Positions 104-39,118 of a stretch of 64,000 nt of DNA are shown here, piece by piece. Position 1 is the first letter of the stretch; each line of letters starts with the position of its first letter. The notes beneath the pieces are model-generated. The model saw only the letters and a list, made by a program, of their open reading frames with translations, did not search any database and had not been told where the DNA came from. Made by a program: the position numbers and the translations under genes. Origin of the DNA: Sclerodactyla briareus (Eukaryota > Echinodermata > Holothuroidea > Dendrochirotida > Sclerodactylidae); assembly GCA_026419785.1 (NCBI GenBank), contig JAODTK010005835.1, forward strand, positions 62,001-126,000. The letters run 5' to 3'.

Positions 104-2110
104 CTGGTAGCTGTATATGGTATGGTCCAAAAGGTTCCTGGCGTCTGTCAATATCTCCTCTGCACTTTTTGACATCCCTCGTCCCACTTGCCATTGCATA
201 CATACTTGAAAGTATACTTAAAGTCGACGAAAGCAATCCGGATGTTAGTCATCAACTCGTAACGAGTTGCCAGTAGAAGAGGCAATCCGTTCAGGTTTTG
301 GGGGTACGTTAGGACTTTGGTCAGTAGTTCCTCGATAGTATTAACCACGGGAACGCTAGCGCCAGAATGTTCTTCCATGTCGAATTTACGATGAACACTG
401 TCCTCCCTCGCAATGCATCGTCTGATATCTGCAAGTACTTCCGCATGTTATTATCTTCTTCCCTACATACCAGTCGTGATAGGTCTGTTACCTTAGCCAG
501 AAACACATAGCACGCTTCAAAGCTACCGTCATTGATCGCGAGACTGAGATTCTCAACGACATCCGTCCGTTGATCTTCGGAAAGGGTCGACCAAGGTGTT
601 TCCAGTGTGAACTTAGCCGCCATTAGGTGAATGTCAGCGATGAGTCTCCTGTATTCCTCGCTCGCTTTTTTTTCTTGTTCTCCTGCAACAGTTCATCAGC
701 GAATGCTTCCGCTGCCTCGACATCTCTGAGCGCACAGAGACACTGACCAAGACGAGCAGAGAATCTCCGGGCCCGATATCTGGGCCTCTTTTCCCTTGCC
801 TGTAATTCCTTCAAAATAGCAGCTGCTCTTTGGAAGTCACACAACCTGTGCCTTATATCAGAGAGGTAACTCATCGCATCTAGCTCTAATTCGGACTGAT
901 TGTTAATCTCTGACTCAATCACATCGAACGCTTGCTTCGCTTAGTTTTGACTGGCGCTGAGAACTCCTTCTGCTTACTCTGTGCACCGACGCTAACGTCG
1001 AGGAAATGGTCTGCGCACAACAACAAAATTGCGTATGCATTATCAAGCGTATCGCTGCGCGGGAATATTGCCTTAAATTGCGTTTAGAATTCACGGTACA
1101 ACGGCAATGAATAATTGGTTTTGGAGACACTTCGGTGCTCCTGAAAAGGTCAGAAAACATTGTTCTGGCTTTCTCAATATGGCCTAGCTCGAATGTTATT
1201 TTCGGCCCTGGTGCATAGCGCAAGGTATATGATTTTTTGTCAGATTCCACTGCGCGACTCACCCATTTCAAGGCACTTTCCCTGAATTGTCGCCGGACAT
1301 TTTCGGGGTAATTCCTGTCTCTGGATAATGTCAGATATACCAAGCCTAGTTGGTATGTAGTCTCTTCAGACTGGTCCCAGTCACTTACCGAAGTTAAAAC
1401 ATTCTTGCTCTCCGGATATCGCCTTTGCTGCCTCAACAACCGTGCGTATATGTGGGCAATAACTCCACTTTAGGTGATTGGGCAGTTCGGCTACCAATTT
1501 TTAGCCCCTCAGTTCTGGTATTCATACGATAAAGGCAATTCCCAAGCTGGGCCCTAGCAAGAGCAAAGCGTGGATGGTCGTCCACCAGTCGTTGAAATAT
1601 CAACTTTTCCTCGCCGTGCAGGCGTTCGACTTCTTCGTGCGTCAACCTTCCCTTTGCCATGTGATATTCATTGGTAGCTTTACGTCCAATCAAAAGAGCT
1701 TTGATGTATAACCACTGTTTTCGGATACCCGGATACCCGATATATTGTGGTGCACTCAGAGCTCTTTCGAGGAGACCGATGGCTTCGTCGTACCGGTCCA
1801 GACCGAGTCTTCTCAACGCTGCGGCTCGCACGACGTCTATATGGGGAGTCGGAGTTGATCCAATACCGCGTTGGAGGTCGCGAAGAGTTGCGTTTTTTAA
1901 ACGTATATTTTGTCACTCTCTTTGAAGTTTCCATCATTGCAGAGCCACATTCGGAATGCGTTGATTAGCAGGTTGTAGCTGTCTTGAGCGTGTTTATCAC
2001 CTGCCCATATTTCATTTGCTTGGGCCTCTCCTCTCAGATATAACAGAGCAGTCTCTGGACTCGATCGTCCCTTCATTTGGAAACTCTCCGGTGGTACCTC
2101 GAGGAATGCC
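104..2110 (-). pseudogene. IFIT-like TPR protein, large internal exon, multiply frameshifted
   Basis: Related to interferon-induced proteins with tetratricopeptide repeats; in vertebrates this family binds foreign RNA in the cytosol. Read from 2110 down to 104, the three frames together align along their whole length with the plus-strand gene at 33.6 kb. Shared blocks include FLEVP, MKGRSSPETAL, INAFRMWL, a HIDVVRAAAL helix, NQSELELDA, ENLSLAI, TRYELMTNIR and FKYTFKYVCNGKWD. TPR-like helix pairs run from about 1840 to 1150. Frame changes fall near 1915, 1448, 1082, 935, 672, 447 and 168, several in homopolymers such as the A-run near 670. The exon is bounded by an acceptor at 2111-2112 after a pyrimidine tract and by a donor at 102-103 directly after codons for YSYQ, the same donor site as in the plus copy. 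The 5' exon is not visible to the right, and the 3' terminal exon must lie left of the window. It is either a decayed paralogue or an intact gene with unpolished indels. Confidence 0.85.
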
Positions 2111-2112
2111 CT

Positions 2113-3445
2113 AATAATTGAGAGAGAACGAAAAAATCAAGGCGATATACAATTTAATAACAACGCACAATAATTGTTACCCGATGCAATGTTTGTTCAG
2201 AGGTTGTATACTGAACGATGTTAGGACCTATGTTATTATATATCTCCGTTTTGAAATACTTGATCGTTTGGAATAGCTTACAGTCAAGTGTAATTGCCCC
2301 TCGACAACGCAAATTATGGGACATTTTAGGCAACACTCGAAAAAAGTACAGCAGTTTTTCACTTTCTTTTTCAAGTATTTTTTTTTAACTCCCAGCAACC
2401 GTGAAATCCCTTTGTATTATTTCTATTATGAAGTTTCCCAAATAGCGACTACGTCTTGTGTATATGAAGAACATTCATACAAATCTTCGACTAAATAACC
2501 CAGGTGTGCCATGGATTTTACCCTGGTTTCTTCTTCAATATCTCGGAAAGAATCGACTGATATGATTAACTGAAAAAATAAAAATAACATAAAAAGAAGC
2601 TTATTATCATGGTTTACTTCATATGAAAAGGTATAATTTTGTCACGTCGTCACGATGAATGATTCGACCTTGAGGAAACTCTCCTCCTGAACGTCTCGCA
2701 CTTTGCCACTAAATGAAGGCATTATCATATATTTATTAATCCGATATGTGATCGTTTTAACCATGGTAAAACTGACCTTCCGGACGGTCTTCCCACCCAA
2801 AAGGTTCACTCGCGTATACGTAACAAGAGCAACCAATGGTGCTCTGTAGATCAAACGAACAAGGACCAAGACCAATTTAAATTATGTGTAAAAGCCTCCG
2901 TGCCATGCCACGCGGGCGGGCGGGCGTCTAAAAATCGCTCATCGTTATTATTTTCAATGGAGGCCGTTTCCGATGCAACGGAGGGCGGGGCGGGCGGGCG
3001 TTTTCTCGAAATCGGTATGTAGCGATTTTTTCGGCACGCCGCGGTCCGGTGGTATTTAGTAATCAATCCCGGGGGATTTCCCTCAATCTTACCGGCTTGA
3101 AGCCGGATGTAATGGAGAGTAGAGGACAATTAGGTTCAAATAATGTTCCACAACATTCCTAACTGTTTCAACACCAGGTATGAGATTTTATACAGATTGG
3201 TTCTATATTCAAACGGCCAGACACCTATTTGAACCATATTTACATGTTTAACCGATGATTATGTCAAGTATGCTAATTAAATCTCCAAAAACCAGTCAAT
3301 TATAATATTGTGAAGTTTTAATTGTGGTCCGTAATCGTTGACATTCAGAACCAAGAGTTTTCAGGAAAAAAACACGGTGTTTAGGTTGAAAATAGTATGC
3401 GTCCGGTGTTTGATAAATAATATAAGAATATATAGTAAACAAAAA
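2113..3445. other. upstream/intron sequence of the minus-strand IFIT-like copy
   Basis: No convincing 5' exon matching the N-terminus of the plus copy was found on the minus strand here. The stretch holds T-rich unique sequence, GC-rich GGGCGGGCGGGCG words near 2,920-3,000, and one copy of a small hairpin repeat (2826-2845). Confidence 0.5.
2826..2866 (+). repeat. hairpin repeat end, copy 1
   Basis: An AGAGCA...TGCTCT hairpin is followed by GTAGATCAAACG. Nearly the same hairpin plus GTAGCTCAAACG recurs at 17,241-17,267 in the same orientation, so this is the end of a dispersed repeat rather than a chance palindrome. Confidence 0.5.
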
Positions 3446-3449
3446 CAAA

Positions 3450-4301
<852 letters not shown>

Positions 4302-4419
4302 CTGGGTTGAAGATGTAGAAACAACTCTGATAGAGAGAGAATTATCACCCATTAGAACTGCCCAATATCGTAAATTTGTTAAATTGGTTCACCTAATTAG
4401 CATATTTTAGTCAGTCAAT

Positions 4420-4770
4420 CAATTCAAGTCAATTTTATTTCGTCCATACAAAAATACTATGGTACAGACAGGACACTAGAAAAATGAGTGTTATAACAGT
4501 TTATCAGCTAGTGACAGGTAACTAAAAAAGTGAAGAGACATAAAAAGGAAAGTGGATCAAGTACAATTATAGAGAATTTGATCGATCAGGTTAAGCTTGC
4601 GATTACGTTTGAAGGTGGCTAGTGTGGTAGACTCATGATGACGTTTGGTAAACCATTCCATATCTTGAAGCAATAGTTGTTCAAAAGTAATTGCCATGGT
4701 TTCGAAGCTGTGCCGGTTACCGAGAAGAGAGATTGTTCTTTGTGCGTGCGCCAGCTCGGGAAGGACGACA
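4420..4770 (-). mobile_element. LINE 3' end fragment (C-terminal tail plus 3' UTR)
   Basis: Read on the minus strand, shifting frame, the segment gives IWNGLP followed by residues resembling the FK..LK tail at the end of CR1/Jockey-like polymerases. It then ends in a short UTR with GACGAAATAAAATTGACTTGAATTG-like sequence. No catalytic domain is present. It may belong to the longer minus-strand LINE beginning at 6.95 kb or be a separate truncated insertion. Confidence 0.5.
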
Positions 4771-4904
4771 CAAGGTCATAAAGCGGAAAATACAAGAGGT
4801 AGATAAATATTTACATACTGGTAAGTAAACAACAAACTGCGAAATTGAATATCGTAGCATAGAGGGTGATCGGAATGAAGGAGCATCGTGGAGTACCGAC
4901 AGTG

Positions 4905-5045
4905 TTGAGGCTCGAGCCGGCCTCGGCCTCTGGCGGCCTCGAGGCCGGTTTTGCGGCCTCGGCCCGGCCCTCGGGGCTGCTACCCTCGGTATCGGCCTAG
5001 GGAGCTCCGGCTACGGATTTTGGCCGAGGCAGGGTCGAGCCGACA
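4905..5045. repeat. GGCCTCG-rich island
   Basis: GC-rich stretch dominated by GGCCTCG and its complement, including the perfect palindrome GGCCTCGAGGCC. A smaller patch of the same word lies at 6,818-6,865. Confidence 0.7.
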
Positions 5046-5599
5046 TATTTTTTGCAATTTAAACTGAAGAAAAATAAAAATTTAGTCACAAATGATGCTC
5101 CCGGATTTGTTTGAATTTCGCGACAATTGAACTAAAGTAGCATTCCTCGGTATCACCAAGAGACTGCCGATAAAAAATGTAATGGCGCTGCCGTTCGGCC
5201 CGCCGTTGCCAATTCCCCAGTGCAGTGATAGGAGTGCCGGCTGCCTGCGCAACTCGCTGGGCATAGACATCTTACAGTACTGAATGACTTGCACGGCACA
5301 GTGCACACATAAGGAGATGTCTCGCTTTTGTACAAAGCAGCGAATCTCCACTGGCGTGGGCACGTGTGAACACTCACTCACTGATCGCCCCGCTTATGAT
5401 GTCGCTAGTAGGAGTTGCGAGATGAAATTATAGTCTCCAGTGCAATAAAACTGTACATAAGCCTGGACCATAAAATACGAAGAATGTGGTCCGTTCTGCA
5501 GATCGTGAATGTATTTTATAATTCAAAAAATGTATTATTTATATACACTGACACTGTAGTGTGTACATGAGGAAATCACACCAAAATATATTAGATTCC

Positions 5600-5810
5600 T
5601 TCATGGCATTATATCTCCAATGGTTCTGTCTTCGCCAGCGCCGCCGCCGACGGAGATTTTTCCATGTTAGCGCGATAACTCTCCAACGCATTGTAGGGTT
5701 CACTTGAAACTTTGCACACATGTTTATCGAATAAAAATCTCGGATGAGTTCAAGCAATGGGAGTCGCCCCACTATCACGATGGCGGGCATCCTGGATTTT
5801 TGACGTTACT
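5600..5810 (+). repeat. GCC-rich hairpin-family repeat, copy at 5.7 kb
   Basis: Contains a run of GCC codon-like triplets, then TTAGCGCGATAA, then AATCTCGGATGA. The same order of words occurs at 28,670-28,800 (same orientation) and in reverse orientation at 24.9-25.4 kb. Confidence 0.5.
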
Positions 5811-6050
5811 TTTTTATCGCGGAGTTGCCTGTTTTGGAACATGGACGATCGTTTCAGACTAAACTTTAGGTAGCCTCATGGGACCCACCGATCTCAGTCG
5901 TTATCGAATGAGATCTAATATTGTCTCTCGAGTCCCGGCCATGATTGCTCAAATATTTGGATAATACGTTGCTGGTTTTGGTTTACCCGCCAGGCGATGG
6001 GTAGTTTAATGTTGACGTTAGTTCAAAAGGAATCGGATGACAGTTATGAC

Positions 6051-6052
<2 letters not shown>

Positions 6053-6084
<32 letters not shown>

Positions 6085-6270
6085 ACGCCCGGATTGTTAA
6101 CACGATAATTCGACTCCACCTTGGTGGATCAAGCTCATACTTGGTATGTGGGTTCCCCATAATGCGGATATGAATCCCTATTGTTTTTCGGTCAGGCTAA
6201 AGGTCATCTGAGGTCAACAAACTTCAGGGCAGTCAAGGTCATTAAGCCTCTTGGCTCTCTGGTTTTGTTT
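6053..6270 (+). repeat. (GT)n-led AGGTCA repeat, single unit
   Basis: A (GT)n run is followed by a unit with ATTGTTAACACGATAA, CTCATACTTGGTATGTGGG and AGGTCATCTGAGGTCA (6201-6216). It ends with TTAAGCCTCTTGGCT. It is the shortest copy of the family that forms arrays at 50.6, 55.4 and 59-62.5 kb. Confidence 0.75.
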
Positions 6271-6819
6271 GTGTGAGGTTTGAGTAACTGTATGATTTGG
6301 ATTGATATTGAGTGAATGTATTGCCTAGCCAAGGTGGATTTTAAATGTACTTTTATTAGATTAAAAAAAATATGTGTTCGTACAAAGGATTGGATGGGCA
6401 GGTCATCTGCTGATTAAGATCCACAGCCCTTTGAAGGAAAGCAGATTGGTCAGCCAGAACAAGTACTCTGATTTCTCCCCAGATGCTGAAATACTTGATG
6501 TTTTCAAAAATGCAGTGCAGTGTCCTTAACATCTAAGGCTAGTAACTGTCTGCCTGTGCCTTATTAAGAGTCATATGAAGAGTGTATTTAATGTGATGGT
6601 ATAAGTAAGCATTTCATATTGTTTCATTCTGAGTACTGACTCCAAGACTAAAATTGGTTGCATAACAACTTTTGCTTGTTCAGTCCCCATTTTCGGGACT
6701 CAAACATTTCTTGTCACCATATTAATCATAATGACTACTGTAGCCATGGGGCAGACAAAACAGAATTACTTATGTATTCAACAAACACGGAATTAAAATG
6801 TATGCTGTTATATTATGCC

Positions 6820-6866
6820 CGGCCTCGGCCTCGGCCTGGGCCTCGAGACTTGCAGCGGCCTCGAAT
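6820..6866. repeat. GGCCTCG-rich patch
   Basis: Short GGCCTCGGCCTCGGCCTGGG patch like the island at 4.9 kb. Confidence 0.6.
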
Positions 6867-6949
6867 ACAACCATGGTACGACGGTTGTCGGTAAGTCGCA
6901 TTTTCAAATCCTACTTTGAAGGACTTGTAAAGGCTTCAGTAAGGTGGCG

Positions 6950-9330
6950 GAGGTCATCCGTACATTTCTACACTGTAGAGATCCTTGACATTACAAGGTG
7001 AATGGTATAGCTTAATAGCGACAGCAGGGGTGAGCGAAGCTCTCTAATAAGCGAAAGAAAATAGGCATTATACTTAGCAATATCCTTGGCAGAGAACATC
7101 AATGTGGCTGCTTGAAGGATAACTGGTCGTCGATAAAAAGACCTAAGTACTTAACACAATTCGCTTTAATAACTGATATCATTCAAGGTAAAGTGCTCAG
7201 GAACATGGTGTTTGGGTGGAAAATGGCGAAGTTTGTGTTTCCCTTAGATGCACAGTCAGTTTTTTAAAATCAAACCAGTTTGAAATAAGCCGGTACGAGA
7301 ACATCATGAGCTTTGTAAACAAGAATCAGTGCACTGCATGGTCATGAACAAAAACATTTGTTCATCAGCGAACATCTGAGGGAATCCGAGGAACAACATT
7401 ACGGATAATGCATTTAGTAGGTAAATAAGAAAAAAATCACGGGCCTCAACAGACTCCGGGGCACACCCGTAGTAACGACGTTGGAACTTGAAGAATAACA
7501 TCCATTGACATACGTGCGTTTTTGTTTATAATTAGTTAGGTAGCTGAGTATGACATCATAAGCTACACCACGAATAACGTTATTGTACAATTAGCAAGAA
7601 GGATATTATGGTCAATATATTCTGGTGTCAAAAGCTTTCTTTAAATCAAGATAAAGGCCCAAGACGCACTTCCCGTTGTACGAATACAATTAATTGTTTC
7701 CAACAGAGCATGACCCGTGCTGTGCCCCTTACGAAGCCAAATTGAAAATCGAATAAAATATTATTAATATTCAAGGAAAGAAACGGAAGGTTTCGTTCCC
7801 CCTTCTTGAAAATGGGAATTACTTTGGCCTCCTTCCAGGCTTCGGGTGGTAAAACACCCGGTGGTTAGAACAGATTAAAGACAGGACACAGAACTGGCGC
7901 AATTAGATGCGAGATGGACTTCCAGACTTAGGGGGGCTGCCATCAGCACCAGGCGACTTATTATCTTCAAGAGCGTCAATTTTATTACAAATTTCATCAC
8001 AAGTGGTAGAGTTAAAAACCATAGTGTTAATAATACTAGTATAAGCATGAATGCATGGATCGTATTACTCAGGATATATCACTGAGTGTTTTTACCAACT
8101 GTTGAAAAAATAGTCATTGAATGCATTAGCTATGTCACCGTCGTCAACAATAGTACCATGATGTAGTTAAGATGTCAACCTGAGTGTGGAATCCTCGTCG
8201 TTGTAGCAGATGTGAGGATAGACCACGTTTTCTGTGCAGAGTGTTGATTATCATGAATAATACGCTTGTGATATTGTGACTCGAATAGCTTATTGTTTTG
8301 TTGAGGACAGATCTGAACTTCGACAATGAAGCTTTTCTTTCGGGAGTAGGGTTAGCAATAAACCTGCGGAACATGGTATTTCTATGGTTAATCGAAGTTT
8401 TTGAGGCGGCAGTATCCAAGCTTTTGCTTATCCTTCATGCGGGACCACCTAGCAGTAAGAAAAGCTTTCAGTCATGGGTGGAAAACTCTTGGAAATGAAT
8501 ATGCTGTAAGCTTCGCTTGCATCAGCGGAATCATAGACACTAGAGGAAGTCAGTAGACTGAATGTTACCAATAAAATTTATCCAAAAGTTACTACTGCTG
8601 TAATTAGAACAAACGGTCTGTTTGCCACAACACCATGAGTGCTAATGTTTCTGAAAACACAGAAATTTGGCGAAAAAGCTGCCCGCAATAATCTCTGAGG
8701 CGTAATCAGTGTGCAATGATCAATCAGCGTACTTGAAAATTCAGTTAACCTAGTAGGTAGGGGAAATTGCAGGTTGCAAAAAGGTTGCCTTCATAGGAAT
8801 AAAATAAACTGGCAAACAGTGCTGCAGGTTTTTCCATATTTGCCCAGATCAATGTTCAAGTCCCATCAAAAATACAAGAACTACCTGGGGGATCGTACTG
8901 CCGTTTCTAGAGCATGGATAAAGTGATTGATATTTCCTTTGGGATGCCTATAGCAAACTATGAATTATAATCTTGTTGTAAACATTGACGTCTAGCCATG
9001 TAGGTCCTCTACTGGCAGTTATCACATTGGCAGTCTAAATATGATGAATACTATTTCTTTTCGATTGACTTGACAAACAAAGTGTTATAAAAAATAGCAA
9101 CACCACCGCATTTGGACTGCGGAGGTACAAGTTCAAAGGAATAATCTGGCAAGATGTTGTCAAACGAATGTGGGACAACATTTAACAATTTCAGAGAGCA
9201 TAATGATATCAAATTCGTATTCAAGACATTCAAGAAAAGTAACAAATTCACTCAAGTGCTTTGGGAGGCTTCTAATATTGAAAAAGTGGAGCACCGAAAG
9301 ACATTATGAAGGTCGTTTTTCATATTTTTA
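6950..9330 (-). mobile_element. degenerate non-LTR retrotransposon (CR1/Jockey-like), endonuclease plus reverse transcriptase
   Basis: Minus-strand ORF2-like protein broken by many frame changes and stops. From high to low coordinate: start of an APE-type endonuclease (FDIISLSE near 9,200; PDYSFEL and GGVAIF near 9,110; WDLNIDL at 8841-8866, matching the GDFNID block); a basic linker (FRRFIANPTPERKA, about 8,340); reverse transcriptase with FDFQFGF near 7,745, a GVPQGS-like block written GVPRS at about 7,460, and the catalytic FADD block read as FADE at 7361-7372; then a C-terminal VKYLG-like stretch (KYLGLFIDDQLSFK, about 7,130). The altered catalytic residue and the stops make activity unlikely. 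The clade is inferred from motif style only. Confidence 0.85.
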
Positions 9331-10110
9331 AAAGAAACGTCACTATAATAGTGCTGCAATTTGAACTAAAACGTTCGTCGGATACATTATTTCCAACACA
9401 AGTTTAGGGTTAAATTCAGAAGAGAAATAAACCTGGGGCCACTGGGTAGGTTATCCAAAAGTAACGCAACTGGATATATCAAGACCGTGAAAGGAGAAAA
9501 AACAATTAAGGCCTGGGGTGATAGTCAAGTTAGTGTTGAAATTGAATGATGCGAGCTTCAGTAACAGCCTCCTCTGAACTGTGGGAATATTTTCTTTAGC
9601 CTTCTTGGGAGAGCGATTAGGTTCAATACCATCTAAAATAGATACTTCAAAGGCCAGATATCTCGATCCATGAAGACAGCAGGGTCGTCGCACTGTCAGA
9701 TCTGACGTAGAAGAGCTATAATTATCTGCAATTTACTGTTGAGACGTTCAACGATGACTTCAACCGAAAGTTTTTCCTCGAGATACTCCTTCAATTCGCA
9801 GTCTCTCCATCCGGGCTAAACCGAGTGGGCGAAGAACGTTAGCCACTCGATATTTCGCTTTGACCGAGGAGATCCCGTAGAGCTGCCCTTTCTCCCACTT
9901 TTGGCACTGATTTTGACTCTGTGCAGACTGGGATTTCTTCAAGTGCACGTCTCTCTTATCTCGGACTCGTTCATGTTTTCCCCTCCATTCGGAACATATA
10001 ACCATGAAAACATCATCATCTGTACAGTTTTCTCCATGTTTACATCGTCCATGATGGCAGATAAATCCTTGTTCTAAGGTATTAAGGGTTATTTTCGGAC
10101 CGGGCAGAAC
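9331..10110 (-). mobile_element. probable 5' part (ORF1/5' UTR) of the same LINE
   Basis: Immediately upstream of the endonuclease on the minus strand. Near 10,000-10,080 a frame reads CHHGRCKHGENC then MVICSEW, a cysteine/histidine-rich patch like those in LINE ORF1 zinc-binding regions, followed by a lysine- and arginine-rich stretch. No complete ORF1 can be joined. Placement with the LINE is by adjacency and strand. Confidence 0.35.
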
Positions 10111-10719
10111 GCGCCTCGTCCGATCCGATATGACCTGTCCGGGGGATTACTTGGCGTTTCATTGCACGGGTCAGTTAATCAAGTCATTTGACTTCGTCTC
10201 AATTGTTGGCAGTGTTCTCAAGTGACGAATATTTCCTTTCCCTTTCACGAACGTGTCCAGGCAGGGATAATCTTTCACGGTCCTGAGTATCATAGCCTTG
10301 ATCATTGTGATGAGCTTAGCGTACGTTATTGATTTCTCTAAGAACGCCTGAATCGTTTGATTTTGGTATTTGTTTTATGTCCCCTTGCCACAAAATGCAG
10401 TTCTGAGGCCTGCACTTCTTTTAAACCTTGAATCACTAATATCTTCCAGATGTTTCTGTTTTTTGTTACTTTTAGCTACCTTTGCGTGTAGTCACCTTGA
10501 AGTTGCAGGTCCTAAAACTTGAAGATCGTCAAATGAAAACAATAACTTTTATGCATTTTCCACAGATTTGTCAAGTAGAACTATCACAGTAGCAATGATA
10601 GATTCTGGAGGGTGACCACGCTTACCTCGTTGTATGTACATAAAAGCTCATTAATAAAGAAAATCCATTGATTGTTAGTTCAAGACCTATTGTAGCTGAC
10701 CTCAACCGTCAAGCAATGC

Positions 10720-23045: not shown

Positions 23046-24880
23046 AATACACTGCATGCGGCGATGCTCTATTACTCACCCAGTCTGATAGCATTTCTAC
23101 GGGTATCACCGACTTATTATCGAAGCCACAGTAGGTAGTTTCAAAAATTATACACGGAATAATGAGTTTGTCTTTAGCCAGTCCGATATATGGAGAAAAC
23201 CTCGTTTTTAATATAAATATTTGAAAAAAAAATCTCGTTTTTAATATAAAAAGTTAATTAAGTAAGATGAGTATTTTTCGACAGCACTCCATATGTAGGA
23301 CCATTGTTCATCAATGGCGTTGACCACATGCTATACGATTACCCATTTTAATACCGGTATGCAGGAGCAATTGACTTATCGACTCACAATTTTACCTTAG
23401 GTGCATTACCGCCGAAGTAAACCATTATCGTCAGACAGTCAGGCAGACATACATATGGACGGAAGAGCGGATCACTGGCACAAAAATGTGCCAGCATATA
23501 GCTGGTGTGAGCAAGTGAGTAAGTCAGATCAAAGGGTTTGTCCCGTCCATACCTGTAGAGCAGATGGCTCTATTGGCATTAAATCCGGCTCATCCTTCAG
23601 GTCCCAGTCAACCTTAATCTTGAGCTTTCTGACGTCCAAGTTTCTGTCTCCTCTGAGGTTCCATTCTGGGCACAAATGGCAAGGGAGTACTTTCCACCAA
23701 TCAGGTGATGAGTTAATCCAGGTTCTTCAGCCAGTGCTTATACACCGACCAAGTAGTGCTGTTCGTCAGATGACCTATACCAGTACACAGAAAACAACAC
23801 GGCTAGTATTCCATAAATACGAGTGCGGGATACGGCTCGACACCATAATTAGCGGGTTCACGTGAGTAAAAACATAGAAAGTATCCCTATAAGCTGTAAT
23901 TGACTTGCAGAGATAGAAACAAGTTCCGTCGCGGTCAAAATTATATCCAAATAAAATGGAACATGCACTGGGTTGGCAAAAACTACATTGTGTGCCACGC
24001 ACGGCAAATGATGCCGCATCACGACTGACGGACCTATAGAATATATCATTCATAGAACAATATGATGTCGTTATTCCGATCTGCTAAATATGTGTGGCCT
24101 TTTCCCCACATCATAAGGGGTATTCGCTGGAAAACAGTACCATGTATGGAGTCCTAGCCTTGAATATAATTGTAGCCGAGGATACTGATACTGGTAGATC
24201 ATCGAATTATCACGAAGACCTCTGGGATGCATCCTGAAAATGGTGCACCTTGTTTTAACAGGAGTTGGGGGATGGCGAGGGTAAGGGTAAGATAGGCTTC
24301 ATAAAGCGGAGGCGGTGTGGCGATATGAATGCAGAAACCGCAGTTTGTGAGAAGGCTATTCTTTAGAATGGATTAAAACTGTTACAATGAGTGTGAATGG
24401 GCCATACATATCTATCAACTCATGAATAGTAATCCGTTTACTCAGTGCTCGTTCATTTCATTTAGATGATTTTTTTTTGTGCTGCTACGGAACTTGTTCC
24501 AAACTCTACAACTAATGCAATCTTCGTCAGCAAACTTCCAAGTCTGTCCCCGCAAGAATCAGCAATATATTAGCGCAGCATACTGCACTGTGCCGCCGCA
24601 TTCACTGAAATCGCCAACCGCACATTGCTCAACAATTCATATCGTCGATTCAAAATCCGTCTTTTTGTGCGTTTTACCTCATATGGATAATATATGTATT
24701 TGTTTCTACATGAATGATGTAGTTACTATCGCCTCTAGGAAATGGTGAGCCTCATGAATGAACCTATATAGAAAAACTAGGCTAGGCCATGTGTAGGGGG
24801 TGGTGAACCGCCTAAGTGTCTATCCCCGCTGTTGATTAATCATTGGGAAGATCTAACACCCCATAAAGACCTCCATTTTG
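23046..24880. other. no gene supported
   Basis: The longest open frame (154 codons, plus strand, 23,401-23,865) shows no domain, no compositional signal and no homology to anything else in the window. I treat it as chance. Confidence 0.35.
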
Positions 24881-27420: not shown

Positions 27421-27589
27421 CCAAGTTCTCAAGCAAACAATGACTGAAGAATAGTTCTTCATGCATCTCAATCCGGAAGTTTATGAGAGGTGAACTGGGA
27501 TTTGGTCAGCATATAAGTGACAAAGACGGCGAGGGGGTGGCCACTCAGGCCAACACTTTGATGTGCCTGAATTGGGAAAATCTTATTTC

Positions 27590-27745: not shown

Positions 27746-27887
27746 ATGTTTGCGTAAATGCATTTCTGCTTAGATTCATGTGGTTGGTACAATGTGCTAG
27801 TTCCTAGAACCAATGTTCTTATACCCAGATTGTTTTTTTTTTCTTTGTTGTTGTTGTTTTTCCTACTTTACTAACCTTCAATTACAG

Positions 27888-28105: not shown

Positions 28106-28119
28106 GTAAGTATATGTAA

Positions 28120-28600: not shown

Positions 28601-28614
28601 GTCGAAGAAAGAGT

Positions 28615-29000: not shown

Positions 29001-29309
29001 ATGGTAAACCCACTACCCTTATTAAGACCCCTAGCTCACCAGGGCAGTCACCACCGCTCAGCCCACTACTCAAAAATACATCACCTCACTTAAAAGTGTT
29101 GAGGGGATATATTGACGAATAAATCGTTGTTCTCGATGATTGAGAATTGGAAAAGAGGTATCCCGAAACGAAAAGTGGAGGGGATGATACTGCCGCTACC
29201 ACTTGTTTTTTCACTAGGAGTGGGGCCTTAGCTCCCTTCCCGATTCTATACCTTTGACTCCAGTTCATTCCAATTTTTATTCTCGCGAGGTGTTATATGT
29301 AGTCATGCA

Positions 29310-29336
29310 CCTTGCGTATGTGCGTGTATGTCTGTG

Positions 29337-29391
<55 letters not shown>

Positions 29392-29720
29392 GTGTGTGTG
29401 TGTGTGTGTGGGTGTGGCATACCTTGTCAGCGCGATATCTAGAGAATGTATGAAGCTCAAATTAGGCACGTTGGTTGCTCATGTGGGATTGTTTTCAGTG
29501 CCAGTTCAAGGTCATTCAAGGTCACGACAGGGCAAATTCTGAAAACTTTGTCAGCACGATATCTAATGATTCAATGTAGGCCTATCTATCAAGTTCATAT
29601 TAGGTTCGTGGGTTCCACATTTGGGGCGGATGAACCCTACTGTTTCTGGAATCAGGTCAAGGTTATTGAAGGTCATCACCAAATAACGGGCAATCCTTCT
29701 ATATCTTGACAACGAAACAT
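29310..29720 (+). repeat. (GT)n microsatellite and following repeat, second subfamily, copy 2
   Basis: About 100 bp of (GT)n with sparse GC interruptions (29,313-29,411) is followed by CAGCGCGATATCTAGAGAA and units with AAGGTCATTCAAGGTCACGA and CAGCACGATATCTAATGA. Apparent long valine/cysteine frames are simple-sequence artefacts. Confidence 0.75.
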
Positions 29721-30557
29721 TTCAGAGCGATGGCGTAATGGAAAATTTTGTTGGTCCAGTGAACTACATCTGCTCACTTTTTGAACCTCATTGCCCTTTT
29801 GACCGTATTTGATTGAAAGAACTCGTGACCTTCGGGGTAAATTTTTTTGTAACGACCAGACTTGTCTTGTTGAAACAACAAATAATCAATTGGCACTGAC
29901 TACTAAAACACTGCTAGCACCTCGATATCCAGTTATGTCCTCTGTAAAGGTGAAACCCGCTGAAACACTGATAAATGTTACGTTCGACACCATCGCTTCG
30001 TGGCACGTATTGAAACATCCCAGAGGAATAGCGTAAAGGAAATTTCTGTTTCGTCTGGCTACCACTGGACCCATCTTTTCATGTACCTACTCAATATATG
30101 GCTTGGTATCGGACACATTGCCAGTCATTAACTTCCATCAATCCTGGAGTGAACCAAGCTTTTGAATAATACATAAAATATCCAATATGTATTGTGATTA
30201 TTCATTTACCAGCATAAGCAGATAGAAACCCCTGCCATTTCGGGAAAGTAGTGATTTATATAGCCACAAGGTATTATTTGCATGTAGGCTAGTTAGTGAC
30301 CAGAGGAGGAACGTGTTACTTGAAACTCAACTTAACAGCAAAATCCGGACGTGTTAGTGTGGGATAAGGTAATTATTCTGCTACAATCCTGCTTATCATA
30401 AATATTCAGAATTGAGTGATCTTGAAAGCCTCCCGGCTTTTGTTACAGGAGTGGGATATACTCAAAGAATTGTTCTTGTTACTTTTATGTTAGTGAAGAT
30501 CAGTATACGGCAGTATACGGCAGTCGAGTCCCGTGTTTGTGTTATGTAATGTTTGCA

Positions 30558-30594
30558 CGGGGGGGGGGGGGGGGGCGGGGGGGGGGGGGGGGTC
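30558..30594. repeat. poly-G tract with one C interruption
   Basis: About 36 nt of G with a single C. One of the longest of many poly-G or poly-C tracts in the window (others at 11,260, 16,010, 37,672, 40,716, 44,186, 47,005, 47,850, 48,588 and 50,270). Confidence 0.9.
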
Positions 30595-30599
30595 TAAAA

Positions 30600-33500
30600 A
30601 TTGTTCAGCTGGTTGTGCAGCGCACGTACAAGCATTTCCACAGTGAACGGTTGCGGACCGGCGGAAGAATATAGGCAAATGAGGAAATGAGATCTCAGTG
30701 ACAGTTTGAGGTTTAACTCCGTTTAAGGATAGGCTATATATCTCAATGGCATCTTGTTATGTCACCAGTCACCTAGTGGCGTTATATTATTCAGTTAACG
30801 TTTGGCTGCTGCTTCTGCAAATTAATTACACTATTTTGTGTCCAGACAGGTCACGACAGGGAGGGACAGGGGGTTACCACAGAGCGTTGCAACAGTGTTT
30901 CACAAGACCAGGACAGTCTGCATAATATGTTGTGTTGGAGCGCAGTTGTGCCTAATCAAGCAGAGGATTTAACCATAGAAGGCGTAGCCAGGGGTACACA
31001 CGTGGATACTGCACGTTTCTAGAGACCCTTTCGGCGTTCTATTTATACTCATCTACTCAAATCCCATATTTCACAACCCGCAATTTCTTCGCTGTAGCTA
31101 TAGGCTACAGAGCACTAGGCGCATCTCTGTAGTTACGGGGGTACGAACAAGTTCACCCCGGGCCCGCTTCCGAGCGGGAGAAAACATGCACAACGATAGC
31201 CTGTAGTAATGTATTACTACATTACCAGCAGAGGGTCTTGTAAAATTCGAAAATGTTTGAATTGCTCAAATTTAAATACCAAGATTGGAGCTTACCTAAT
31301 AACCCAGGAACGTCGCTATTAGAGTTCGAGTCCCTTGCCAATCCTGAATTTGCCTGATTCACGCACCGGTACCTCTGAATTCAACAACGCTGCGTACACT
31401 GGCTGATTGTTCTAAATTTTCTCTTGCGTACAAAATCCCCGCTAACTCTTGCGGCTAGGCTACGCGGAGGCCACATAAATGTCACAATAAGGGAATCCCA
31501 CGTTCCTAAAATGGAGCCAATTCCGTTTCTGACATGAACGCAACAAACTACATAGCTGCGACATCGATTTTTTCTACGGTGGTTTTTAGAGACCCCTATT
31601 CCAATGAAATAATAAATATGCTAATACGTTCAGGTTATTGGTGGGCCCTATATATATAATCAGATCAACACGGCTCACAAAGAATGATCATAACTACGAG
31701 ATGCCAAGTTGCCATATATACTGATTCATTATGGAGAGATAAATAATAAAGTATGCGATAATCACTCGAGTAAGGAACTCATAATTCATACGATATGACG
31801 TAATAATTCGGAGATCTTCAAAACATGTTATAAACAAAATGCATTTTATGTTGTATAAAGCTGGAGAAATTCAGCATGTTCACATTTGTTGAAAATTATC
31901 GATGGACGTTACGACAAAGACAAAAGAAGATACCGGAAGATACCGGAAATAATTGACAATGACAAGTTATTGTTTAACCTCTTCAAGATGATAAGACGTC
32001 ATCTTTATTCGTCAGTAGCCAAATTTTAAAAGTAATAATAGTTCCGTCGAGATCCTATGGGCCATCAGAATTACGAAATATTTTGTCATAAATAATAAAT
32101 ATGTGATAACTATGAGATGATGTCCTAATGACGTATTGATGAGTAATCGTGAGATCATTGGATAGATAACAAAGAGGACTCATTAAATAATAAGAGCTTG
32201 AAACGCCTGTTACCTCGATTATACTTCAGTATAGTAGATATATAGTAATGAATGACTATGATTTCAGTGATTTTCATGCAGTAGGCTAATACACAAACGT
32301 AGTCTGGTTGTAGCCACTGCTTTAATAAGGGGGGAAGAGCCTGAGTGGCGGTGCGACGAGAAGGAATATGGGGGTCGGTTCAGCCTCTCCCCACTGTCGA
32401 CTGCTGCAGCAGTATTGGCAGTATGCCGCGTAACTAAGCTCAATACCAAGTTACATCTACCTATGTTTTAATATCTATAGTGTTCACACGGTCGGTATTT
32501 TACGCAGTGCATGAGTGCTGAATTTGTTTGTGAAGTAGACTCATAGAATGAGGGGAACACTCAACAAGGATTTCCGGTGATCCTGTGAATATCAAATTTT
32601 CTGGTGCACTGCAACAAATAACATTGTTTAATTCGTTCTACTGTTCTCGCGGAAGTAGGATTTCGCCACCCTGTTAAGGAGAAGACCCACTGACAGGGAG
32701 AGCCTATCGCTAGTCATTCACTACAGACAACCGCTAACACAGTATCAATGTTACGTGGACTGGCCACCTGCAGTGTCGTTATATTTCGTGCATAATCAGC
32801 GGGATTTGTGTTCTTCGTAATTCTGTACCGCTCTTCGTCTATCTTGTGGATGTTGTTGTTTCGCTCAATCGTTGGATTTTGGATCGTGTCTTTCCCATGC
32901 AGAAATAGTTTTGTTGAGGCCTCAGAGGTTTGAAGGGCAAATACATGATCAATTTCAAATGCGCTAATATTTTAGCTGACGATGAACTGAATGTATCAAT
33001 CTGATCCAGGCAGACATTCGATTTTCCGTTACGAAATGAGAGGCTTCCAAAATGTGTGCGTGCATGAGTATTGCGCAAGCTCGAAACTTTGTCATATGCA
33101 AGAAAAAATGGTGCGACAGTCATGTCAGCATACCTGAATTATGTACTTTGTTTGTTTTTCATTGAAAATCGCCAGTTAATTTGCTCGAAAACTGAGGGTA
33201 ATGTTACAATTGCAACCCCATTACTTCTAGCCCATGCATTTGGAATCAAGGTTGCTCAGACACCAGATTTGTGAGTTTTGTCTTATGGTCGAGCACCACT
33301 GATCGAATGGTACAATGAAAATATGAAGTATGCTCTGGTTTTGGCTGTCAACTGCTTTTCATCACACAAAATGGCAACTCTGATTAGCCCTGCCTTCATC
33401 AGTACTTAACAGAATCACGCGAAACACAGTGCCCATACACCACCTAGCACAACTAATTGATTCGAGATAATCACTCTCAAATAATTCATCAGTTCCCGGT

Positions 33501-33600
33501 TCCTACTTGTTACGCCTGTGTTTACCACTAGGCAGGAAGATATAATTTCAAATAGAGACTATAGTTTCGTGTGCTGTAAAACCGTCAAGACACATATCCA
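30600..33600. other. upstream intergenic region of the plus-strand IFIT-like gene
   Basis: AT-rich, unique-looking DNA. A GGCGTAGCCA word at 30,981-30,990 marks a possible end of a dispersed element. A TATAATTTC word lies 70 bp before the IFIT-like start codon, but no firm promoter or interferon-response element is seen. Confidence 0.4.
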
Positions 33601-33610
33601 AGGCTGAAAA

Positions 33611-35744
33611 ATGGAGGACAATTGGTGGAAACATCTTCCTTGTCACTTCAATCGAGAGTGGAATCTTCAGGGAGAAATTAACCTAGACATCAGAAAGCTT
33701 AAGCAAAGCGTGGATTGGGATCTCGAAGATGAACCAGAATTCATGCAAATCGAAAATCTGTTGTACAACGGGCGTTCCTGGAGGTACCATCAGAAAACTA
33801 CCTCATGAAGGGAAGGTCCAGCCCGGAAACCGCTCTCAAGTATCTCCAGACGGCCGAGAAAAAGGTGAAGGAGATCTGGGGATGCGACCAATACGCTCAA
33901 GATTGCTACAGTCTCGTGATCAATGCATTCCGAATGTGGCTCTACAACGATGGAAAATTCAAAGAGACTGCGAAAATTGAAGAGTTGAACAAAACTCTGA
34001 CGACGCTGAACACCGCGGTTGGGTGTGTAACCTCGACGCCGCAGATAGACATCGTACGCGCTGTAGCGCTGACAAGACATGGTAGATACGAGAAAGCGGT
34101 TGAACTGCTTGACGGAGCCTTGGGGGACCCGCGATATGCTCAGATGAAAAACTGGCTGTTCTGGAAGGCACTTTCAATTGGACGCAGTGCTCGCGATGAG
34201 AGTAGACTCTCTGCAAGGAAGACGTCAGATGAAGATTTGAGGAGACTCTTCAATGAAGAAAAGTCAATCCTGGAAGAGCTAGTTGCGAAACATCCGACAT
34301 TTGCTCGGGCAAAGGCTTATCTTGGGAGGTGCCTCTACAGTATAGATAATAGTAGAAGTAGTTGGCTTGAAGATGTGTGTGGCGCCCTCGAAATTTCACC
34401 ACGTGACAGAGATATTGCGCTTACATGTGCAATAGTGTTTAGATGGAACGGAAACTACGGAAGAAGTAAACGTATTCTAGAGAATTTCGTAGAGAAATCG
34501 CCATCGGCAGAGGTATTTTACCAATTGGCGCTAATATACAGAGGACTCGCTCATGATGAAAGCCTACCAGAAGATCATACACATTATTACATTACACGCT
34601 GTTTTCAATACGTGACCGAAGCTGTGAATCTAGACAAAAGCCACGTACGCGCAAACTTCACAATGGCGGAGTTAACTGTTGAAATGGGCAGAGCCTTAGA
34701 AGCGAAAACTTTGTTTCGTGATCTTTTCACGGGGAAAGACATGACACCGGGTCAACTTTTTGAGGGTCGCTGTCGTGAAAATGAAATCCCACAACTTCGT
34801 CGAATTTTCGACACCAACGAGAGGCTAGACAATGCATACCGCATTCTATTAATAGGTGCAGAACATTTCGCTGAAAATAGTTGTGGTTCCACCAGTAAGA
34901 AAGAATTCATGACATCGGTTAGATCTGGGACCGACAAAGCATTTGAAGTCATTCATTCTGAGATTTCCAGTCAGTCGGAATTGATGTTAGATGCAAAGAG
35001 GTTCCTTTCAGATATCATGTTCAGAATGGGTGATTTCAGGGAAGCCGAGAACAGTTGGCAGTGCGCAAGAGCAGGAAGGAAGTCCGAAGTATAGGGGTGA
35101 GATACTCTGGCGGCGTGGGGAAAAGTCTTTGTGCGATTGGAGACGACGTGACTGCAGAAGAAGTAGCTAAATTGTTGCAAGAGACCAAAGAAGAGAGACA
35201 GAAATGCAGAGAACTCTTTGCAGATATCTATCTTATGAGGGCCAAGTCCATTTTGGGAGATGAGCGGACATCATCCTCTAGTTCCATGGCCGTTGAAAAT
35301 CTTAGCCTGGCGATTGTCCATGGAAGCATTGAAGCCTGCTATACGTTTTTGACCCAAGTTAAAGACCTGTCACTTCAAGTATGCAGAGAGGATGGTTGCA
35401 CTGCCGAAGTGCTGGTGGATATTAAACGATGTCTTCTGAGGAAAGACAGCGTCCACTATGCTTTCTACACAGAAGGACAGTCAAATGAGAGCCTTTCAGT
35501 GCAAGATAGCATTAGAGAACTCTTGACAAACGTACAGACACACCCCAAGCCACTCGATGGTCTCCCACATCTCCTGAAAACAAGATATGAACTGATGACG
35601 AACATCAGGAATAGGTTCATCGAATTTGAATATACTTTCAAATACATCTGCGAAGGAAAGTGGGATAAAAGATGCCAGGAGGCAGCAGAGAAGACGCTAG
35701 TGGATGCCAGGAACTTGCTGGATCATATCATATACAGCTATCAG
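33611..35744 (+). CDS. IFIT-like TPR protein, first (large) exon
   Basis: Cytosolic TPR-repeat protein of the interferon-induced IFIT type; the vertebrate family senses viral RNA, and the role here is inferred from family only. The start at 33,611 (AAAATGG context) has an in-frame TGA just upstream. The N-terminus has the family hallmark LPCHF...INLDI. TPR-like helix pairs lie at about 34,057-34,123 (GRYEKAVELLDGAL), 34,426-34,503 (GNYGRSKRIL), 34,516-34,644 and 34,651-34,728 (GRALEAKTLFRDLF). The exon ends in YSYQ, in phase 0, at a GTAATT donor. Two single-base frame breaks are visible: near 33,771 (a G-run, probably one G missing, restoring AFLEVPSENYL) and near 35,050. With the terminal exon the product would be about 795 residues, much longer than the roughly 470-490 of vertebrate IFITs. 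Alternative: a recent pseudogene. Confidence 0.85.
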
Positions 35745-35785
35745 GTAATTGCTTGTATATTTCATGATTGCGCGTGTGGGTGTTC

Positions 35786-35970
35786 GTATGAACGTGTGTG
35801 TATGTGTGTGGTGTGTGTGCGTGTGTGTGTGTGCGTGTGTGTGTGTGCGTGTGTGTGTGTGCGTGTGTGTGTGTGCGTGTGTGTGTGTGCGTGTGTGTGT
35901 GTGCGTGTGTGTGTGTGCGTGTGTGTGTGTGCGTGTGCGTGGGTATGTTGTGTGTGCGCGTGTGCGCGCG
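35786..35970 (+). repeat. 12-nt (GCGTGTGTGTGT)n minisatellite
   Basis: About twelve copies of a 12-nt unit made of GT repeats with one GC, located only 40 bp past the splice donor. Reading frames through it give valine/cysteine runs and are not coding. Confidence 0.95.
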
Positions 35971-36459
35971 CGCGTGCGTTGTGGTTGGTGAATGCGTGAA
36001 GGGTAAGTCTTGCTTGTTATCGGAATTCCTTTGAAACCATGGGACTCATTTTGATAATTTTGAACGTGGTATCGGGGTCAGGTCTGTTTAGATTCAAGTA
36101 ATTAAGTAGGGTGGGTAATCACCCTATTTTATGGACCTACTTTTTTGCTTGCCAGAAAGTGACGGACGATCCCAAGGAACTGGTGTAGTGATGCACTGAT
36201 GTGGTCTGACATACATGCACAGGATAGCAATTACTTGCACTGATGATTTTCAAACGACGAATATGCTGATTAGTGCATAATGTTATCCAAAGTTTGAATT
36301 TCGTCGGATTCCCCCGAAACTTGGTGTTCAAGTTTAGGATTAGATTCAAATCACTGGTGGTCATTCAATTGTTGTTTTAATTTTCACATGATTCCCCCTA
36401 TTTTGAAAGTCCATCGGATATTTACGAAACTTGGTGATAATGTGATACAAAGTACAATG

Positions 36460-36690
36460 GGATACAAAGCTAGTAAAATAGTAGGAAATATGCACAAGAA
36501 TATAAGCTAATAGTACAAAAATTAGGCAGTGTTAGTGCGTCAAAAACTGTTAGAATGTAAAAATCACATAAAAGCGGATATAAAGAAGTTTGTCTTAAGC
36601 TTGGATTTGAATAACCCAAGAGCATGTGCGTGGCGGATGTCGTTAGGAAGCAAATTCCATAGGCATTGCGGCTCCGGAGGCATATGCTCC
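36460..36690 (-). mobile_element. LINE 3' tail in IFIT-like intron, antisense
   Basis: On the minus strand, shifting frames give a MPMEFAS..-DIRHAHALGLFKSKLKTNFF reading, which resembles the terminal IWN.LP...FK..LK block of CR1/Jockey-like polymerases. An AT-rich UTR follows. A similar tail is at 4.4-4.8 kb. Confidence 0.45.
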
Positions 36691-37129
36691 CCCACCGACG
36701 GCGCTGTTCCCGTACCCCTCCCATCAAAGGCACCGTTTGTTTCACATGTATGTGGGGATGTGTCAAGTATTCAATCAGTCAGGTGTTCAACCAATCAATT
36801 AACCTTATTATCTCCCACATTCCTCCAGAGGGCGGTTTTGGACAGGCATCCCAGAGATACAGTGTTCCCTAATTCACACGGTGATGAGAAGGGAAAGCCG
36901 GTGGAGAAAAAGTTTGAGGATACCTACAGAAATTGCCACAAGGCTTGGTCCCCCTGTACCACAAGATATAAAGGATTACATCATTAAGGTAAAGAGGGTT
37001 AGAGAGACCCTTGCAATTCCACTCACGTGCAAACATTTGGTCAATAAGATTGGTTAGAACATTCACACCTCGGTGACAGTGACAATCCGCCCCAAGCTGG
37101 TTTTAGGGGTACAATTTTGCATTTTCAGC

Positions 37130-37570
37130 CTAGCCTAGCTTTGATGTCATTTCGTGCGATATAATAGCACACTGGAACACTCACCTCGATTTGGGAATAA
37201 TTTTATATTTACACCTAGTTTCAAAGAAGCCAAAATTGATATTTCTGGGTGGCTTCTGATGCACTTTGGTGCAATACAGCACACCTAGCTAGCCACCCAA
37301 ACGGTGTCTCCTCATAAATTTTGTGTATTTGTATAGGTGGGGAACAGAGAGACATTTTTGTATTTCCAGGTGGCCTCCGATATATTCCGGTTTGCAGTAT
37401 GGCACACATGAGCACCCACCTGTTCGGGAAATAGGTTCATATTTTCACAAGTTCCAAGAGGGAAAACTGTGGGGATTTCTTGTGGCCTTTGGTATAATCT
37501 AGTGCAATGTATATTATATACACCTAAACATTCGTTTGGAAATAATCGTGGATTTTCACCTATAGCAGTC
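37130..37570 (+). repeat. four-unit tandem repeat, period about 115-125 bp
   Basis: Units with GTGGC.TC.GAT..ACT..GGTGCAATA..GCACAC start near 37,145, 37,248, 37,370 and 37,480. Each is followed by ACCC and ATATTT.CAC. Units are diverged from each other. Confidence 0.55.
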
Positions 37571-38064
37571 TTAGTGGACTTAGTGGACTGCATGGGTCTA
37601 AAGGTAGGGTGTCCTCTCTCTCTTGAAAACAAAATTTATTTCGAGGTGCAATCTTCGATGTAGGGCAACATACCCCCCCCCCCCCCTCCAAGAAAAAAAA
37701 ATCCAGAAAATTGCAACGGGAGGTGTTTTTATTCAGTAAAAAAGTCAGTAGATATGATATCTTGTTTGCCTTCCTAGCTCATTGTTCACCCGATATACGA
37801 GGATTTATGTTTTCCAAAATGGTGGATGGCAGGGATTCAGTATTATGTTACTGTTCGAACACTTTCTGGGACTCCGATTTTGTGCAACTTTGAATGAAAT
37901 TATTGTAAGCTACCAGAAAATGCAAATGAACCACCCTGTTGCATTTTTTTTTTGGGGGGGGGGGAGACATGTTCTATGTTTACTCTACTACTTATCTAAT
38001 AGGAGAGGTGCAATATATCATGCCTGAATACATTCACGTCAATTTTCCATGAATGGCGAATGAT

Positions 38065-38420
38065 GTTAAAGGAGAATTAAAGTCTGACTTTGACAGAGTG
38101 AAATAATATTGTTAAATGAGAGACCATCATGTCATGAACATCTTTTCCAATTTCATCCTAAAATCCCTTGTATACTTTTTAGGTATATCACTTTGAATGA
38201 AACGACACGAAAATGGGACACGAAACGGGAATAATAAAGAATACTTTGAATACAGCTGGTAGGGGTTGTGTGAATCATGTTAGACTTGTTCAAGTCTCTG
38301 CCGTTCACCTGGAGGGAAAACGGCAGAGCTCGTCTCGTTGATTCAACTGAATATAACTCGGGAAGGAACAATAATTTTTTTTGTAGAATGTTCAGTACAG
38401 AATTCAATTCTCCTTTAATT
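38065..38420. mobile_element. MITE-like element with terminal inverted repeats
   Basis: The left end reads TTAAAGGAGAATTAAAGTCTG (38,066) and the right end, inverted, reads TTAAAGGAGAATTGAATTCTG (from 38,418). The terminal 14 bp are identical, and TTAA at the outer edge could be the target duplication. The element is about 355 bp, has no coding capacity and carries an internal hairpin with CTCTGCCGTT / AACGGCAGAG arms at 38,296-38,305 and 38,319-38,328. Confidence 0.6.
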
Positions 38421-38857
38421 TATTGAGGAGTGAAAAAGGGATGAAAAGTGTGGGACGGGCAGCTCAGTGATATTTCAGCTCCACATTTTTCACCGAAATC
38501 GAATATTCGGCAAAAAACTCATCATACGAAAAATTAAGCATAGAACAGATACCGGACAATCCCGACACGTAAAGCAAAAGTGAGAGAAAATTGTCAGGAT
38601 TTTCTTCATCGAATGCCCGTAAAATATGCAGACGTTGTCGAGCGCAAAGATTTCTATACCAATTCAGCAATTAGTTTTACGGACGAGGGGCAAAAAAAAT
38701 TCGTGCTGCGTTTTGAGATCCAGGCAAAAAAAAATCCCGTCCCACACACATACTTCAATGTGAAGTACCCTGCATGGTGTACGTACCCCCCCCCCCCCCT
38801 CTCCATTACCCTCTTATCTGATATTTACCCCTTCTCGCTCGTTTAGCTGCAACCCAG

Positions 38858-39118
38858 ACCAACCCGAAACAATGGATAAATGCCCTCTCTCAATTCGTGA
38901 ACGACGCCAAGCATAAAGGATCCGACTACAGTGACATCGTTCGGGGTACTGCCGGGAGATTCGGCAAACCTTTCGAGTACAAGAAAGAAAACCTGGTCAG
39001 AATCAGCTGCTGCCGAGTCGAAGAAATTGCGGTCACACTACTTGAGTACATACAGAGTCTGCATGAAGATGGAGAGACCAAACCGGGATTTGTGCTTGAC
39101 CACGAACGGATGACATGA
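38858..39118 (+). CDS. IFIT-like TPR protein, terminal exon
   Basis: The acceptor CAACCCAG ends at 38,857. From there an 86-codon frame runs to TGA at 39,116-39,118 and is phase 0, exactly what the large exon donor requires. An alternative upstream AG at 38,845 would hit a stop after ten codons, so the later AG is preferred. The product segment begins TNPKQWINALSQF and is helical, rich in charged residues (KHKGSDYSDIV, KENLVRIS, VEEIAVTLLEYI). It ends without any recognised motif. No frame break is seen. The corresponding exon of the minus-strand paralogue would lie outside the window. Assignment rests on phase, splice signal, strand and distance. Confidence 0.65.
   Translation, partial: TNPKQWINALSQFVNDAKHKGSDYSDIVRGTAGRFGKPFEYKKENLVRISCCRVEEIAVTLLEYIQSLHEDGETKPGFVLDHERMT

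What the first reader, a model, noticed from the sequence alone, without database searches (positions are those of the whole stretch)
104..39118. Two IFIT-like TPR genes in opposite orientation, 31 kb apart
Both share the N-terminal AFLEVP/MKGRSSPETAL block, TPR helices and the same YSYQ|GT donor. Because they lie on opposite strands they read away from each other, suggesting a diverged inverted duplication or part of a larger cluster. IFIT genes are best known as vertebrate interferon effectors. A family with large products here would bear on how old this antiviral-type family is.
Basis: partly seen in the sequence, partly recalled or inferred. Interest (0 to 1): 0.75.

Follow-up and report, generated by a model that had tools for sequence, protein, structure and literature searches.

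The report
IFIT-related TPR gene pair
Two real paralogous genes here, part of a family of at least six loci, encode about 800-residue TPR proteins that look distantly related to the vertebrate IFIT antiviral proteins, and their broken reading frames look like assembly errors; if the animal is an invertebrate, the IFIT type would be older than usually stated.

Summary
The minus-strand gene (exon 2110..104) and the plus-strand gene (33611..35744, last exon 38858..39118) read away from each other, are 48.6% identical (320 of 659 codons), share the splice donor and show constrained protein sequence. Three actin loci of the same assembly carry 11 frameshifts and no stops in 1054 codons, so assembly indels are likelier than decay. 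The minus gene has its own copy of the last exon 11 kb outside the window. Four further loci lie on three other contigs. IFIT relationship: the window genes alone match no IFIT in the PDB at E up to 10. A four-paralogue profile matches human IFIT2, IFIT1 and IFIT5 (E 4e-8 to 1e-7) over one long stretch; OGT and designed TPRs rank higher, mainly by summing short repeats. Human IFIT2 and IFIT5 against the whole 319-Mb genome each report one place, a member of this family (E 0.007 and 0.08, weak). So: IFIT-related is likelier than not, membership unproved. Host phylum not established; fold prediction poor (pLDDT 51).

The parts
33611..35744 (+). Plus gene, main exon: N-terminal WWKHLPCHF motif, AFLEVP..MKGRSSPETAL block, TPR body, ends YSYQ|GTAATT. 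Frame changes near 33750-33770 and near 35047.
33805..35091 (+). Uninterrupted 429-codon stretch of the plus gene with TPR repeats (Pfam TPR_19 E 7.1e-10).
38858..39118 (+). Plus gene, last exon (TNPKQWINALSQF..LDHERMT, TGA 39116-39118), acceptor CAG at 38855-38857 (boundary inferred from frame).
104..2110 (-). Minus gene, main exon: acceptor TTATTAG at 2117-2111, donor CAG|GTAATT at 104/103; seven frame changes.
23553..23702 (-). Second copy of the N-terminal exon (DWWKVLPCHL...), donor CAG|GTATGG; probably the first exon of the minus gene, inferred from strand and order.

Best explanation
The two genes are diverged paralogues of a small multigene family (at least six loci in this genome) of long TPR proteins of about 800 residues whose first ~500 residues are distantly homologous to the vertebrate IFIT proteins. 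Shown: gene pair, exon order, paralogues, TPR repeats, constraint on the protein, frameshifts of a like rate in actin loci, in-register similarity to IFIT carried by a ~160-residue core. Inferred: the genes are intact in the animal and the frame breaks are assembly indels. Inferred from homology only: the TPR solenoid forms a groove with a partly basic inner face that captures nucleic acid, most likely foreign or unprocessed RNA 5' ends, keeping it from translation or replication, with the extra C-terminal ~300 residues as a lineage-specific partner-binding or regulatory part. RNA binding and induction by infection are untested.
For: Gene reality. Family. Four-gene profile against the PDB: IFIT2 3.6e-8, IFIT1 8.9e-8, IFIT5 1.1e-7, IFIT3 6.7e-4, one stretch each. 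hhalign of the four-gene profile with four IFIT chains: probability 98.5, E 3.9e-15, score 122.6 in register; next register 45.0, reversed 19.9, 100 column shuffles max 24.3. The 164-residue core alone: E 6.7e-16, 0 of 60 shuffles reach it. Single-sequence templates on the full profile: IFIT1, IFIT2, IFIT5 79.5-84.2 against OGT 63.2 and consensus TPR 75.9. IFIT profile finds paralogue C2186 at 1.3e-8, OGT 0.27, consensus TPR 36. Human IFIT5 and IFIT2 each report one match in the whole genome, the C2186 member (E 0.081 and 0.0068). Frame control: three actin loci, 11 frameshifts, 0 stops in 1054 codons.
Against: The window genes alone reach no IFIT at E<=10. Four designed TPRs (best 1.4e-27) and five OGT chains (best 3.6e-10) outrank IFIT on summed score, and OGT (5.9e-5) just outranks IFIT2 (1.4e-4) for the C2186 fragment. 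A fourth IFIT template, a second IFIT2 chain, scores 62.5, below OGT 63.2 and consensus TPR 75.9. On the core alone the consensus-TPR template (63.9) lies within the IFIT range 55.3-69.5. The N-terminal 62 residues and the C-terminal part give no significant similarity on their own. The IFIT profile had four sequences, its rivals one sequence each, and its lead on C2479 is 20.9 against 19.2 bits. Of the IFIT5 RNA contacts, Q41, Y250, R253 and Y254 are not kept; K150, R186, R260 and Q288 are kept or conservatively replaced, but K/R is common at such sites in ordinary TPRs (the last remark is recalled). The reciprocal hits are weak. The structure model has pLDDT 51.
Confidence: 0.6

Rival explanations
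1. A lineage-specific TPR family unrelated to IFIT by descent; the similarity is ordinary TPR resemblance.
For: Designed TPRs and OGT rank at or above IFIT on summed scores; the consensus-TPR template is close to IFIT on the core and one IFIT2 chain scores below both OGT and consensus TPR; no N- or C-terminal end similarity significant alone.
Against: One register strongly preferred, 122.6 against 45.0; IFIT best on single-stretch score, 28.7-33.8 bits against 16.4 (OGT) and 25.0 (consensus); IFIT profile ahead on 3 of 4 paralogues; IFIT queries report only this family in the genome.
Confidence: 0.32
2. The two genes are decayed pseudogenes.
For: 8 frame changes in the aligned main exons of the pair; some paralogues, above all those on C2474, carry in-frame stops in the matched stretches.
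Against: Three actin loci of the same assembly have a like frameshift rate (3.5 per kb; minus gene 3.5, plus gene lower) with no stops; no in-frame stop among the aligned codons of the pair under the scoring used; pN/pS 0.44 with saturated silent sites; splice signals kept.
Confidence: 0.12
3. The host is a vertebrate and these are merely divergent true IFITs.
For: The host was not identified; COX1 and mollusc haemocyanin searches were empty and uninformative.
Against: Human IFIT5 and IFIT2 find nothing better than E 0.0068 in 319 Mb, whereas IFIT1, IFIT2 and IFIT5 match each other at about 1e-123 or better; product ~800 residues with a separate last coding exon.
Confidence: 0.07

Closest known systems
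Vertebrate IFIT family (IFIT1, IFIT2, IFIT3, IFIT5)
   Same: TPR repeats; in-register profile alignment over IFIT5 57-375; multigene family with copies on one contig; basic or polar residues at IFIT5 K150, R186, R260, Q288 positions kept or conservatively replaced.
   Different: About 800 instead of ~480 residues; extra C-terminal ~300 residues and a separate last coding exon; RNA contacts Q41, Y250, R253, Y254 not kept; 19% identity over 300 aligned columns.
O-GlcNAc transferase TPR domain and consensus/designed TPR proteins
   Same: Generic TPR repeats, high summed profile scores.
   Different: Several short stretches instead of one long one; best single stretch 16.4 bits (OGT) or 25.0 (consensus) against 28.7-33.8 for IFITs; no transferase domain among the Pfam matches.

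Membership tests
IFIT | TPR repeats | tested here: met
   Pfam TPR_19 7.1e-10; both composites match
IFIT | Closer to IFIT than to other TPR families in profile searches | tested here: inconclusive
   IFIT ahead by single stretch and register, but OGT and designed TPRs higher on summed score and one IFIT2 chain below them in hhalign
IFIT | Collinear similarity along the IFIT length | tested here: met
   hhalign 62-383 against IFIT5 57-375; 4-513 against 11-481 at low stringency; statistically carried by the core 212-375
IFIT | N-terminal CHFTWNL-type segment (label from my reading of the IFIT chains) | tested here: inconclusive
   LPCHFNREWNL aligns with LECHFTWNL in register, but residues 1-62 alone are not significant
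IFIT | Typical gene structure (first exon with little more than the ATG, the rest in the second exon) and ~480 residues | tested here: not met
   WWK..C N-terminus fused to the main exon in three loci, separate last coding exon, ~800 residues; in PMC3688568 46 of 60 genes have two exons and exceptions exist (passages)
IFIT | RNA 5'-end contact residues | tested here: inconclusive
   K150, R186, R260, Q288 positions kept or conservatively replaced; Q41, Y250, R253, Y254 not; residue roles from PMC9677429 and PMC13197388, passages
IFIT | Induction by interferon or virus | not testable with these tools
   no expression data
IFIT | Binding of 5'-triphosphate or cap-0 RNA | not testable with these tools
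   bench assay needed

The most novel reading that the evidence does not exclude
The IFIT type did not arise with jawed vertebrates: an older animal family of long IFIT-related TPR proteins, already duplicated into several genes, exists outside them and may bind non-self RNA without an interferon system.
Probability: 0.45. Interest if true: 0.75.

Novelty: new variant of a known kind. Interest (0 to 1): 0.55.

Why it matters
The one survey seen here that looked for IFIT outside jawed vertebrates (PMC3688568, passages) concluded that invertebrate and jawless hits were not IFIT counterparts and tied the family's origin to jawed animals. A paralogous family that reaches IFIT from both directions (family profile to IFIT, IFIT to this genome), if weakly, makes that dating testable, and would give a system in which to ask what an IFIT-type protein does where interferon may be absent. 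It also warns that an assembly with frequent one-base indels can hide such genes from ordinary gene callers.

Tried and rejected
The best hit (C-type lectin, E 0.0039, six stretches of about 3 to 4 bits) and its galectin hits (from 0.53) were judged chance. Rfam gave no match. The COX1 search had no match and mollusc haemocyanin gave nothing, in the 14 control genomes neither, so the phylum stayed open; an annelid marker search did not complete. The prediction of window:33754-35091 from one sequence had mean pLDDT 51.1, pTM 0.40; the fold comparison was never accepted, so no structural match is claimed. Conserved RNA-contact positions were considered and not counted as proof, because basic residues at those TPR sites are common. 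Literature: searches (listings, most of them capped) showed no title on an invertebrate IFIT; the only statement seen is the negative one of PMC3688568. Passages of PMC9334734 named only IFITM-like genes; passages of PMC4887208 were read for contact residues and had none. PMC5787515 and PMC6723221 hold the term together with invertebrate terms and were not opened. From memory, automatic annotations of invertebrate proteins as IFIT-like exist in public databases; not checked here.
Full report
Observation. The minus gene's main exon (2110..104) and the plus gene (33611..35744 and 38858..39118) lie on opposite strands, 31.5 kb apart, reading away from each other. Frameshift-aware alignment gives 659 codon pairs, 320 identical. 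Silent sites are saturated (pS 0.75) and replacement sites are not (pN 0.33). DNA similarity between the two was found only in the exons. Both main exons end YSYQ|GTAATT. The last exon of the plus gene ends with TGA at 39118; searched against the genome at E<=1 it finds itself and one other place, C3078:50955-50779 minus, 44% identical over residues 29-85 and itself frame-broken, in the right place and orientation for the minus gene. The N-terminal exon has a second copy at 23702..23553 minus with a good donor; I take it for the minus gene's first exon across a 21-kb intron, which is inferred.

Broken frames. The alignment needs 7 frame changes in the minus exon and 1 in the plus exon, and the N-terminal part joins out of frame in both. 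As a control I took three actin loci of the same assembly, those holding the best of 16 actin matches; the matches on C2088 and at C2792:288580 were not examined. They are 93.9, 92.4 and 87.5% identical to recalled human actin over the aligned residues and carry 5, 2 and 4 frameshifts and no stops in 374, 369 and 311 aligned codons, 1054 in all. Two exons of the third locus were aligned only over 23 of 41 and 41 of 83 residues. This is 3.5 per kb, as in the minus gene (7 in 659 codons); the plus gene has fewer. I conclude that the assembly has frequent one-base indels and that the window genes are probably intact; that the actin loci are themselves decayed is possible but unlikely for all three. 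Matched stretches of the minus gene and of the C2474 and C2479 loci include stops, and the read-through passes two stops in C2479 and one in C2186, so real decay of some copies is not excluded.

Family. The window lies at C3078:62001-126000 of a 319-Mb genome in 3171 contigs. Protein searches find further members at C2479, C2186 and twice on C2474. C2479 and C2186 were aligned along nearly the whole main exon, from the N-terminal WWK motif to the final YQ or CQ before the donor, needing 11 and 9 frame changes; their identity to the plus gene is 27 and 28%. The C2474 loci match C2186 best, 56% over 126 and 37% over 327 positions in their first pieces. Counts of loci are lower bounds by the tool's own statement.

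Relation to IFIT. Alone or as a pair the window genes match no IFIT in the PDB at E<=10, though IFIT chains are in that library. With four paralogues (A2) 80 distinct PDB sequences match at E<=10, 60 shown; 7 of those shown are IFIT chains, from 3.6e-8 (IFIT2) to 6.7e-4 (IFIT3). Nine sequences rank above the first IFIT: four designed TPRs and five OGT chains, all with more than one stretch. Controls: profile against profile, the in-register alignment scores 122.6, the next register 45.0, reversed IFIT 19.9, best of 100 column shuffles 24.3. By segment: residues 1-62 not significant (1 of 60 shuffles as good), 85-215 marginal (0 of 60, probability 4.3), 212-375 E 6.7e-16 (0 of 60), 372-520 not significant (1 of 60); residues 1-120 gave 28.1 against a best of 26.3 in 200 shuffles, carried by residues 62-90. 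Against single templates the full profile scores IFIT2 84.2, IFIT1 81.4, IFIT5 79.5, consensus TPR 75.9, OGT 63.2 and a second IFIT2 chain 62.5; on single hmmsearch stretches the four IFITs score 28.7-33.8 bits, consensus TPR at most 25.0, OGT 16.4. On the core alone consensus TPR (63.9) falls among the IFITs (55.3-69.5) and OGT below (48.2). In the other direction an IFIT profile scores C2186 37.5 bits, C2479 20.9, the plus gene 11.4 (not significant) and the minus gene -0.8; the OGT profile gives 13.1, 8.5, 1.5 and -0.2, the consensus-TPR profile 7.0, 19.2, 6.0 and 1.7 (four sequences in the IFIT profile, one in each rival). Human IFIT5 and IFIT2 against the whole genome each return one match, the C2186 locus, at 0.081 and 0.0068; the tool's first look passed two candidates each time. 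For the C2186 fragment against the PDB 17 sequences match at E<=10: 7 IFIT, 5 OGT, 3 designed TPR, 2 others, with OGT first by three weak stretches, the best 12.6 bits. I read this as distant homology to IFIT, likelier than not but not proved.

Function. IFIT5 contacts 5'-triphosphate RNA through K150, R186, R253 and others (PMC9677429 and PMC13197388, passages). At the aligned positions the family has R/R/R/K, R/R/R/K and L/H/M/I; R260 and Q288 are kept in all four, while Q41, Y250 and Y254 are not. So part of the basic lining could exist, but a strong contact is lost and such residues are common in TPRs (recalled). RNA capture in the groove is my best mechanism, by inference only.

Age. PMC3688568 (passages) ties IFIT to jawed vertebrates. 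Whether this finding contradicts it depends on the host, not identified here. The weak whole-genome IFIT matches argue against a jawed vertebrate.

Noticed in passing
58953-62530: A 3.6-kb stretch that is 79% identical to its own reverse complement, with related pieces near 6.1, 50.6 and 55.5-56.5 kb: looks like a foldback repeat family.
   Followed up: no
50591-51218: About two copies of a 308-base tandem unit, related to repeats at 55.4-56.6 kb.
   Followed up: no
3451-4301: 851-base AAT microsatellite 1.3 kb upstream of the minus gene's main exon, giving false open frames of over 300 codons.
   Followed up: no
35794-35964: GT-rich microsatellite about 50 bases into the plus gene's intron; it prolongs the open frame falsely.
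   Followed up: no
L026, L027, L028: Each of the three actin loci examined contains frameshifts inside exons: the assembly has frequent one-base indels.
   Followed up: yes
L033, L034 (C2474:126359-126760 and 162328-162799, minus strand): Two more family members on one contig, same strand, 36 kb apart, with several stops in the matched stretches.
   Followed up: partly
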